From IMG/VR virus record IMGVR_UViG_3300030673_000034, positions 1-30,642 of that record: 30,642 nucleotides of DNA; one strand, written 5' to 3'. A model generated the notes under the pieces. It worked only from the letters and a program-made list of their open reading frames with translations. It was not told where the DNA came from and did no database searches. This DNA is from a virus. Within the stretch, counting starts at the first letter, position 1. Each line of letters opens with the position of its first letter. Shown here piece by piece: positions 166 through 27,130 of this stretch. The position numbers and the translations under genes are program-made.

Positions 166-576
166 ATGAATTTAGCAACAATGCTTGGCCAGTCTCTTAT
201 TTCAAAAGATACTGCAATGTTAATCAACAGTGAGTTATACAAAAGGGGTCAGGTAACTGAGAACCGGGTTATAATCATTACACCTAAAGAAATTGAGGGT
301 AGGACTGCATCTGGTATAATCATACCCGGAGAAGTAACAGAAGGGGTACCAAGAAAGGGTATCTGTGTTCAAATGGGAGAGTTCACTGAAGAGAATCGGA
401 CCTATACCTCTGTAGTTGGGATTGGTAATGTACTTACCTATGGCTTATATGCTGGTAAGGAAATTGATCTACTAGAACCCCTATTAGTAAAAGGTTTTAA
501 CCCTGACAAACATGAACTAAGGTGTATATCAGTTAATGAGATTATGTATTCTGAGTATCCAATTAAACTAACATAA
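166..576 (+). CDS. GroES-like co-chaperonin (gp31-type)
   Basis: This 136-residue protein resembles the GroES/Cpn10 fold. Residues 34-40 (RVIIITP) match the first core strand. Residues 42-62 form a Gly-rich mobile loop whose hydrophobic G-I-I-I-P (50-54) corresponds to the GroEL-contacting tripeptide. Residues 63-71 (RKGICVQMG) and 86-100 match the later barrel strands. The family caps GroEL so that substrates can fold. Phage versions such as T4 gp31 replace host GroES to fold the major capsid protein, with the host supplying GroEL, and no GroEL is seen here. The N-terminal extension of about 30 residues is longer than bacterial GroES (about 97 residues). The start at 166 follows an A-rich leader (acaaaaacatt). 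It is separated by 12 bases from the SSB gene, so the two probably share a transcript. The family call is by motif only. Confidence 0.72.
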   Translation: MNLATMLGQSLISKDTAMLINSELYKRGQVTENRVIIITPKEIEGRTASGIIIPGEVTEGVPRKGICVQMGEFTEENRTYTSVVGIGNVLTYGLYAGKEIDLLEPLLVKGFNPDKHELRCISVNEIMYSEYPIKLT

Positions 577-25608: not shown

Positions 25609-25995
25609 ATGACAGAAACAACATTCAGGTTAAGGATCATCCCTAATCAAGGAGCAAAACCTATATTTGCAGACTTACATAGACTAGACTACGATGCACT
25701 GCTAGTTCAATCCAAGGTAGAGGGGACCTTTAAGGTATACCTGGTTAGATCCATCTTCAACAATGAAAAGGTAAGGATAACACCCATGAAGAAGATACAG
25801 AAACATATCCACCCTAATCAACCTTTCTTAACTCAGCGGGAGGAGGATATGGCTTGGGGAGCATTAAGAAGGAAACTAGCAGATGATGATAGGAGTATAT
25901 CCGAAGATGATATTAATGGGGCAACAGATAAACTTTTCTATGATGCCCATGGTTTTGAACACAACACATTTGAATACTACCCTATAAAACTATAA
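25609..25995 (+). CDS. Hypothetical protein upstream of the PvcA/Dit1-like gene
   Basis: In this 128-residue protein, the N-terminal half is beta-rich (TTFRLRIIPNQGAKPIFADL, then VYLVRSIFNNEKVRI). The C-terminal half is acidic and helical (REEDMAWGALRRKLADDD). No family is recognised. It is first in a promoter-driven operon with the 376-residue gene 4 bases downstream, so the two products are likely to act together. Confidence 0.77.
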   Translation: MTETTFRLRIIPNQGAKPIFADLHRLDYDALLVQSKVEGTFKVYLVRSIFNNEKVRITPMKKIQKHIHPNQPFLTQREEDMAWGALRRKLADDDRSISEDDINGATDKLFYDAHGFEHNTFEYYPIKL

Positions 25996-25999
25996 TAAA

Positions 26000-27130
26000 A
26001 TGAAAACAAGAATCCTAACAGAAGAAGAACCATTTGCAGACTTAATCTGTTTTCACCTAAGGAAAGAATTCCCAGGTATTACTACATTAAGTACTTGCGA
26101 ATTAGTTGAGGCCTTATCCAATGAGATAATAGGCACCAAGGAAGTAAGGTATGGTTCATTGCCAATACCAGAATCCCTGGTAATTATCAGGGAAGCAATC
26201 AGGGATGCAATCAAAGCTGACCTCCCAATCCCTATATTAGTTCCCTGGGGTAGCATCAAAGCAAACTTTTCAAAGAGCTTAGATATTGCCGAGGTATCTG
26301 CAATTCAAAGGCTAGTACAACTTCAAAACAACATCAAGTCATATTACAAACCTGGAGCAGAAATAGTAATCAGGGTGGAAGATACCTCTGCCTATACCTT
26401 ATTCTCTCTGGAAAATGATGGAGAAACTAATAAGAACATTGATTCCTACTCCGGGGATATGCAAACCCTGGTTAATATCCTAAGCCCAGCTGATGGGAGT
26501 ACTGGAAGCATAAGAGTACTACTCGAAAGCAGTATGCCCCAAGCTCTTAACTTTAACAGCACAGCCTTCTACAAGAACCAAACGAGGATATACAACTACC
26601 TGAGGGCAACTAGAGATATGGAAGATCCCCAAGAGATGATGGCAACAAAACAGTATGATGTACTTAGAGATAATGGCTGGAAAGGTTACATTTCTAAAGT
26701 ACAAAGGGAACACTACCTTTCAAATTACAGAAGGATATATGATTGGGATGAGGATACAAACCTCCATAGGCTATCCTTATACTTTGCAGGTGCCTGGAGA
26801 AGGTTCCAACTTAATATGACCGGGAAACAGGAATATTGGGATAAGTTTATCCAACTGAACTACACTGCCCCCATTAAAGGTTTACCTGAAGGTTACGGAT
26901 ATAATACCATATATTATCGAACATTGCCTTTATCAGAAGCAAGGACACATATGAGTCCATGGAGGTCAAAGGGTTACCTTAAGATCAATGGCAACACATT
27001 AACCCATAAACTTACTACCTGGACGGATACTGAATTAATCAGCAGGCTAACCAAAGTAGATATGGTACTAAGCAATGAAGACAATTCACTATCAGTAATA
27101 ATTGAGGCTGACTACTTATTAGAAGCCTAA
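26000..27130 (+). CDS. Possible PvcA/Dit1-like (isocyanide synthase family) protein
   Basis: This is the largest protein in the second half of the window (376 residues). Residues about 76-160 follow the order of the DIT1/PvcA family: a Pro-rich strand then a Lys/Ser turn (PIPILVPWGSIKANF, 76-90), an acidic helix (LDIAEVSAIQRLVQL, 94-108), a helix ending YKPGAEIVIRVED (116-128), then a strand-turn and IDSYSGDMQTLVNIL (147-161). In that family these parts correspond to the segments around PDxxE, YxPGAxxxIxSDG and the V-x-x-Y helix. The canonical SDG is VED here. An RLSLYF segment (254-259) could correspond to the family's RLSIH motif. Known members make isonitriles from amino acids and ribulose 5-phosphate. 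The similarity is distant and needs testing. Confidence 0.55.
   Translation: MKTRILTEEEPFADLICFHLRKEFPGITTLSTCELVEALSNEIIGTKEVRYGSLPIPESLVIIREAIRDAIKADLPIPILVPWGSIKANFSKSLDIAEVSAIQRLVQLQNNIKSYYKPGAEIVIRVEDTSAYTLFSLENDGETNKNIDSYSGDMQTLVNILSPADGSTGSIRVLLESSMPQALNFNSTAFYKNQTRIYNYLRATRDMEDPQEMMATKQYDVLRDNGWKGYISKVQREHYLSNYRRIYDWDEDTNLHRLSLYFAGAWRRFQLNMTGKQEYWDKFIQLNYTAPIKGLPEGYGYNTIYYRTLPLSEARTHMSPWRSKGYLKINGNTLTHKLTTWTDTELISRLTKVDMVLSNEDNSLSVIIEADYLLEA

What the first reader, a model, noticed from the sequence alone, without database searches (positions are those of the whole stretch)
26000..27130. Possible PvcA/Dit1-like (isocyanide synthase family) gene in a phage operon
The 376-residue product keeps the order of motifs seen in the DIT1/PvcA family: Pro-rich strand, acidic helix, Y-x-P-G-A followed by a strand and an acidic turn, then a Tyr helix. 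The canonical SDG is replaced by VED. Such enzymes make isonitriles from amino acids and are not usual in phage genomes as far as I know. If correct, this would be a phage metabolic or modification enzyme, with the coupled 25609 product as a partner. The similarity is by eye and distant.
Basis: partly seen in the sequence, partly recalled or inferred. Interest (0 to 1): 0.68.

Follow-up and report, generated by a model that had tools for sequence, protein, structure and literature searches.

The report
Phage relatives of isocyanide synthases
A phage gene encodes a distant, previously unclassified relative of the enzymes that make isocyanides (reactive carbon-nitrogen compounds), and the same gene occurs in at least 14 different phage sequences from environmental DNA, which suggests that phages carry an unexplored enzyme of this kind.

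Summary
ORF 26000-27130 (376 aa) belongs to a conserved phage family: 16 IMG/VR contigs with the window, 14 distinct sequences, 27-57% identical to it. No relative was found in 50,697 phage records, and there is no PHROG. The family is a distant branch of the DIT1/PvcA isocyanide-synthase superfamily (PF05141).

Evidence: PF05141 is the top Pfam hit of all eight members scanned. The family profile's first PDB hits are isonitrile synthases (PIsnA 1e-4, PvcA 0.002). hhalign against bacterial synthases gives 95%, E 2e-8. A 14-sequence AlphaFold model (pLDDT 91) matches PIsnA and PvcA over residues 27-373 (Z 20); tyrosyl-tRNA synthetases follow at Z 10. Full-length PF05141 proteins of Patescibacteria are hit at E 4e-10.

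K87, D95, E98, G119, Y150 and W321 are invariant in all 27 superfamily sequences aligned, so a working enzyme is likely. The synthase motifs KSPN, SDG, RLSIHPQ and TPWH are rewritten, so substrate and product may differ; it is not filed as an isocyanide synthase proper. No neighbour is conserved, no PvcB-type oxygenase was found, and the 'partner' at 25609 is unsupported. Chemistry and biological role are inferred, untested.

The parts
26000..27130 (+). CDS, 376 aa, phage branch of the DIT1/PvcA (isocyanide synthase) superfamily
   Evidence: Pfam, PDB profile, hhalign, AlphaFold plus Foldseek/VIA
26243..26260 (+). PWGSIK motif (residues 82-87) with the superfamily-invariant K87, equivalent to FPxKSPN of PvcA/IsnA
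   Evidence: alignments
26282..26293 (+). DIAE motif (residues 95-98), D95 and E98 superfamily-invariant, equivalent to PDxxE of PvcA/IsnA
   Evidence: alignments
26345..26383 (+). YKPGAEIVIRVED (residues 116-128): YxPG shared with isocyanide synthases; VED replaces SDG
   Evidence: alignments
26447..26449 (+). Y150, superfamily-invariant Tyr of the following helix
26948..26965 (+). HMSPWR (residues 317-322), equivalent to the TPWH motif; W321 superfamily-invariant, H replaced by R322
   Evidence: the register in this half is lower confidence
25609..25995 (+). 128-aa ORF ending 4 bases upstream, probably co-transcribed; no family and no conserved association, so not counted as a functional partner

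Best explanation
The gene encodes a phage-specific branch of the isocyanide-synthase (DIT1/PvcA) superfamily. Shown by computation: homology, the full-length isonitrile-synthase fold, and an invariant K87-D95-E98-G119-Y150-W321 core. Inferred: it is a stand-alone enzyme that uses the superfamily's class of chemistry. It would bind an amino acid or another amine in the tyrosyl-tRNA-synthetase-like pocket, condense the amine with a ketose phosphate such as ribulose-5-phosphate, and release an isonitrile or its hydrated N-formyl form. The rewritten SDG, RLSIHPQ and TPWH motifs would give it another substrate or product than PvcA. Its most likely use is an accessory small-molecule or modification function during infection, for example inhibiting host or competitor enzymes, because the gene stands alone in unrelated phages without fixed partners. 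Confidence by step: homology and fold 0.97; active enzyme 0.8; amine plus sugar-phosphate condensation 0.45; isonitrile as the actual product 0.3; inhibitor role 0.2.
For: Top Pfam hit PF05141 for eight of eight members. Family profile hits isonitrile synthases first in the PDB. hhalign 95.3%, E 2e-8, against seven bacterial synthases, far above shuffles. Model pLDDT 91; Foldseek E 1e-9 and VIA Z 20 to PIsnA and PvcA, next class Z 10. Phage profile hits full-length PF05141 proteins of Patescibacteria at E 4e-10. Six core residues invariant in 27 sequences. Present in unrelated phages without shared neighbours.
Against: Single-sequence Pfam score is below the curated cut-off. KSPN, SDG, RLSIHPQ and TPWH are not kept. 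No PvcB-type oxygenase in any of 13 records, although these are incomplete. Two relatives are fused to a MerR-type HTH, so some superfamily members may be sensors. No biochemical data.
Confidence: 0.45

Rival explanations
1. Same fold, other chemistry on amino acids: a class-I-synthetase-like enzyme that activates an amino acid or acts on aminoacyl-tRNA, like cyclodipeptide synthases, to alter translation or make small peptides.
For: The fold is shared with tyrosyl-tRNA synthetases (Z about 10) and a cyclodipeptide synthase (Z 9); the phage profile weakly hits one Patescibacteria tyrosyl-tRNA synthetase (E 8e-4).
Against: Structural score is half that of isonitrile synthases; no HIGH or KMSKS motif in the sequence; the conserved K, D, E and W match isocyanide synthases.
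Confidence: 0.2
2. It modifies a nucleotide, DNA base or tRNA of phage or host, using the same amine plus sugar-phosphate chemistry on an amine other than a free amino acid.
For: One family phage carries QueC near the gene (L032); the Taylorbacteria copy lies near a C-5 cytosine methylase and an EVE-domain protein; the signature motifs for the classical substrate are altered.
Against: These neighbours occur once each; no modification genes are shared among the phages.
Confidence: 0.12
3. A non-catalytic binding or sensor protein that keeps the fold but not the reaction.
For: Two Patescibacteria members of PF05141 are fused to a MerR-type HTH domain; several synthase motifs are lost in the phage branch.
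Against: The polar core residues K87, D95 and E98 remain invariant across the whole superfamily, including all phage-type members.
Confidence: 0.15
4. Chance resemblance; the protein is unrelated to isocyanide synthases.
For: Only the sub-threshold Pfam score of the single sequence.
Against: Profile, fold and intermediate-sequence evidence agree.
Confidence: 0.02

Closest known systems
PvcA / IsnA isocyanide (isonitrile) synthases (PDB 3e59, 9dh4, 9dhm; Pfam PF05141)
   Same: Full-length fold (Z 20); invariant Lys, Asp, Glu, Gly, Tyr and Trp at equivalent positions; same motif order.
   Different: About 15% identity; KSPN, SDG, RLSIHPQ and TPWH replaced; 4-residue insertion after ED; own invariants (R50xG52, E176, H317, R322); carried by phages, outside biosynthetic clusters.
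Yeast Dit1 (N-formyl tyrosine for the spore wall)
   Same: Same Pfam family; shows that the family is not limited to isonitrile products (PMC7345447).
   Different: Eukaryotic, works with the P450 Dit2; not compared residue by residue here.
HTH-fused PF05141 proteins of Patescibacteria (L061, L062)
   Same: Hit by the phage profile at E 4e-10 and 6e-10; shares the RxGS, PxxxxK, DxAE, YxPG and THxxPW motifs.
   Different: 593 aa with an N-terminal MerR-type HTH; keeps HDG and RLTVHPK; passes the PF05141 cut-off, as the window protein does not.
GGYK proteins of Patescibacteria (L057-L060)
   Same: Group next to the phage family in the tree; share GGxK-like, DW[AS]E and YxPG motifs.
   Different: About 320-340 aa, SDD/SDE/SNE in place of VED; function unknown.
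Tyrosyl-tRNA synthetases and cyclodipeptide synthases
   Same: Same overall fold class (Z about 9-10).
   Different: Half the structural score; the phage protein lacks HIGH and KMSKS.

Membership tests
Isocyanide synthase proper (PvcA/IsnA, PF05141) | Full-length isonitrile-synthase fold | tested here: met
   Z 20.4 to PIsnA over 277 residues, 19.9 to PvcA; next fold class Z 10
Isocyanide synthase proper (PvcA/IsnA, PF05141) | Score above the PF05141 curated cut-off | tested here: not met
   Window protein 22.5 bits against 26.4; of 12 relatives' records only L034's passes, at 26.6
Isocyanide synthase proper (PvcA/IsnA, PF05141) | Core Lys, Asp, Glu, Gly, Tyr and Trp | tested here: met
   Invariant in all 27 superfamily sequences aligned
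Isocyanide synthase proper (PvcA/IsnA, PF05141) | KSPN, [SA]DG, RLSIHPQ and TPWH motifs | tested here: not met
   Replaced by KP/KA/KS, ED plus a 4-residue insertion, LSFxxP-like, and [PA]WR
Isocyanide synthase proper (PvcA/IsnA, PF05141) | Biosynthetic partner such as a PvcB-type Fe/2-oxoglutarate oxygenase (PF02668) | tested here: inconclusive
   0 of 13 virus records, but the records are incomplete
Isocyanide synthase proper (PvcA/IsnA, PF05141) | Forms an isonitrile from an amino acid and ribulose-5-phosphate | not testable with these tools
   Needs an enzyme assay
DIT1/PvcA superfamily in the wide sense | Sequence-profile homology | tested here: met
   hhalign 95.3%, E 2e-8 (controls in 92); phage profile against full-length PF05141 proteins E 4e-10
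Class I tyrosyl/tryptophanyl-tRNA synthetase | HIGH and KMSKS motifs | tested here: not met
   Neither motif occurs in the sequence or the family alignment
Cyclodipeptide synthase | Use of aminoacyl-tRNA through a conserved catalytic Ser | not tested
   Only fold similarity was measured: Z 9 to 2x9q

The most novel reading that the evidence does not exclude
Phages carry their own isocyanide- or formamide-forming enzyme with a new substrate, used to poison host or rival-phage enzymes or to modify a host molecule during infection: a chemistry not known from viruses.
Probability: 0.25. Interest if true: 0.85.

Novelty: new variant of a known kind. Interest (0 to 1): 0.62.

Why it matters
In the sources I could search, isocyanide-synthase-like proteins are described from bacteria, fungi and a few other eukaryotes, and a tree-of-life survey of PF05141 names no virus (PMC5974471). 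A conserved branch in phages, with the reactive core intact and the substrate motifs rewritten, points to an unexplored phage enzyme. It gives 14 sequences and a short list of residues with which to test it, and it connects unstudied Patescibacteria branches with the classical synthases.

Tried and rejected
Single-sequence AlphaFold failed (pLDDT 32), so relatives were gathered first. Single-sequence searches for relatives in IMG/VR and GenBank phages found nothing; a degenerate DNA pattern for PWGxxK...DxAE solved this (all 10 hits true). The 25609 product as a partner was rejected: no relatives, and absent from the other records with the gene. A conserved neighbourhood was sought and not found. 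A PvcB-like partner was sought and not found. A mention of pvcA in an Aeromonas jumbo-phage paper is only a list of gene names in a table. No paper on a phage-encoded relative was found; no paper on the 2025 PIsnA structures was found and the 2008 PvcA structure paper is not held, so ligand-contact residues could not be taken from the literature. Of seven bacterial genome hits to the DNA pattern, six were chance. Near-identical contigs of the window phage (L002-L005, L008) do not reach the gene's position, so they neither confirm nor deny its presence. Chance similarity was rejected on profile, fold and bridge evidence.

Full report
Observation. The window is a 30,642-base IMG/VR virus record, coding mainly on the + strand, with replication and repair genes at the left end: single-strand binding protein, UvsX-like recombinase, SbcD- and SbcC-like nuclease subunits, RusA-like resolvase. 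ORF 26000-27130 encodes 376 aa. Its best Pfam match is DIT1_PvcA (PF05141), E 9.2e-5, 22.5 bits against a cut-off of 26.4, residues 91-179. It has no PHROG match better than E 0.33, no tblastn match in 50,697 phage records, and no significant single-sequence PDB match.

Relatives. A DNA pattern for PWGxxK-x7-DxAE scanned over IMG/VR gave ten stretches, and all ten encode relatives. A profile scan raised this to 15 contigs besides the window; a repeat scan and a looser pattern found no further ones. There are 14 distinct sequences, 27-57% identical to the window protein. The contigs are 17-223 kb long, and those tested carry phage genes: terminase, portal, primase, Dda-like helicase, DNA ligase, Sak4-like annealing protein. 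Of the 14 gene-bearing virus records searched for the window's UvsX, only three have a match, at 30-39% identity, so the gene occurs in unrelated phages. No neighbouring gene is shared consistently within 10 kb, apart from duplicate contigs. Three other members also have no match in the GenBank phage collection, and one has none in plasmids.

Homology to isocyanide synthases. All seven relatives scanned have PF05141 as top Pfam hit in the same register. A profile search of the PDB returns isonitrile synthases as its first three distinct sequences: 9dhm 1.1e-4, 9dh4 1.3e-4, 3e59 (PvcA) 0.0021. With the larger alignment they are the only three hits up to E 10. Bacterial synthases fetched from plasmid records compare with the phage profile at 95.3% probability, E 2e-8, over residues 51-171. 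Column shuffles reach at most 1.3%, and shuffles of intact 10-column blocks at most 80.9% with E 1.3e-5. A search of 380 genomes of the phylum of a Taylorbacteria MAG found two proteins that are full-length PF05141 members (E 5e-32 and 4e-31) and are hit by the phage profile at 4e-10 and 6.4e-10. This is a direct sequence bridge.

Structure. AlphaFold2 on the 14-sequence alignment gives pLDDT 91.2 and pTM 0.89. Foldseek against the PDB ranks PIsnA (1.2e-9) and PvcA (1e-8) first. VIA-align gives Z 20.4 over 277 residues to PIsnA and 19.9 to PvcA, then tyrosyl-tRNA synthetases at about 10 and a cyclodipeptide synthase at 9. The match spans residues 27-373, so the C-terminal half is synthase-like too, although its sequence is hardly alignable. 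Among predicted viral structures the best matches are giant-virus tyrosyl-tRNA synthetases at E 8.5e-4 and weaker, so no closer viral relative is in that library.

What is kept and what is not. Across 14 phage-type sequences (one from a MAG), 7 classical synthases and 6 further Patescibacteria sequences, K87, D95, E98, G119, Y150 and W321 are invariant, and Y116 has one exception. The Lys corresponds to FPxKSPN, the Asp and Glu to PDxxE, the Trp to TPWH. The phage family rewrites KSPN to KP in most members, SDG to [VIL]ED with a 4-residue insertion, RLSIHPQ to an LSFxxP-like strand, and TPWH to [PA]WR. It adds its own invariant or nearly invariant residues such as R50-x-G52, E176 and H317. I read this as a working enzyme with the superfamily's reactive core and a changed substrate or product site. 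That is inference: no coordinates or assays were available, and the alignment of the C-terminal half is of low confidence.

Mechanism. Classical members join the amino nitrogen of L-Tyr or L-Trp with a carbon of ribulose-5-phosphate to form an isonitrile (PMC7949033). Yeast Dit1 most likely yields N-formyl tyrosine instead (PMC7345447). My best guess for the phage enzyme is the same class of condensation on an amino acid or another amine. Isocyanides can inhibit essential bacterial enzymes covalently (PMC11290450), which makes a host- or competitor-directed small molecule plausible, but nothing here shows it. The lack of fixed partners argues for a stand-alone accessory function.

The cellular copy. 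One phage-type homologue lies on a 20-kb contig of a Candidatus Taylorbacteria MAG that also carries DNA polymerase III alpha, an ABC-F-like ATPase, a C-5 cytosine methylase, an EVE-domain protein and a PIF1 helicase. It looks chromosomal, perhaps a variable segment; a binning error cannot be excluded. In the tree the phage-type sequences, this one included, group together with 72% support, next to the GGYK Patescibacteria group (100% for the pair of groups).

Partner claim. The 128-aa ORF at 25609-25995 ends four bases upstream and is probably co-transcribed, but it has no family, no IMG/VR relatives and no counterpart in 14 virus records and one MAG that carry the gene (an empty search without a positive control is weak evidence).

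Host. Start codons in the window are preceded by A-rich leaders mostly without a Shine-Dalgarno sequence, G+C is 35.6%, and among UvsX relatives with a named host the better-scoring ones include Chryseobacterium, Cellulophaga and Tenacibaculum phages. A Bacteroidota host is therefore likely (inference).

Verdict. The finding is real and was correctly guessed. It should be filed as a distant, phage-specific branch of the DIT1/PvcA superfamily, not as an isocyanide synthase proper.

Noticed in passing
L061 and L062 (Patescibacteria genomes G360:C9 and G345:C42): 593-aa proteins in which a full-length PF05141 domain is fused to an N-terminal MerR-type HTH; in L068 the gene lies near recombinase genes and genes that look by eye like an RloAB-type pair. 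A possible sensor or regulator use of the isocyanide-synthase fold.
   Followed up: partly
L057-L060 (Patescibacteria genomes G184, G334, G117, G208): A separate group of 320-340 aa PF05141-like proteins with FPFGGYK, DW[AS]E, YxPG and SDD/SDE/SNE motifs, next to the phage family in the tree; function unknown.
   Followed up: partly
L049 15527-16708 (Taylorbacteria MAG contig): Phage-type homologue on a chromosome-like contig with a C-5 cytosine methylase, an EVE-domain protein and a PIF1 helicase close by.
   Followed up: partly
window 9188-30642: About 21 kb of mostly small ORFs; none of the products scanned has a PHROG of known function, several of them 200-300 aa long.
   Followed up: no
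window 166-576: 136-aa product with a weak match to a phage GroES-like co-chaperonin (phrog_3188, E 9e-4).
   Followed up: no
window, upstream of most start codons: A-rich leaders largely without Shine-Dalgarno sequences, suggesting a Bacteroidota host.
   Followed up: partly
L063: The phage family profile weakly hits a Patescibacteria tyrosyl-tRNA synthetase (E 8e-4), a sequence echo of the shared fold.
   Followed up: no
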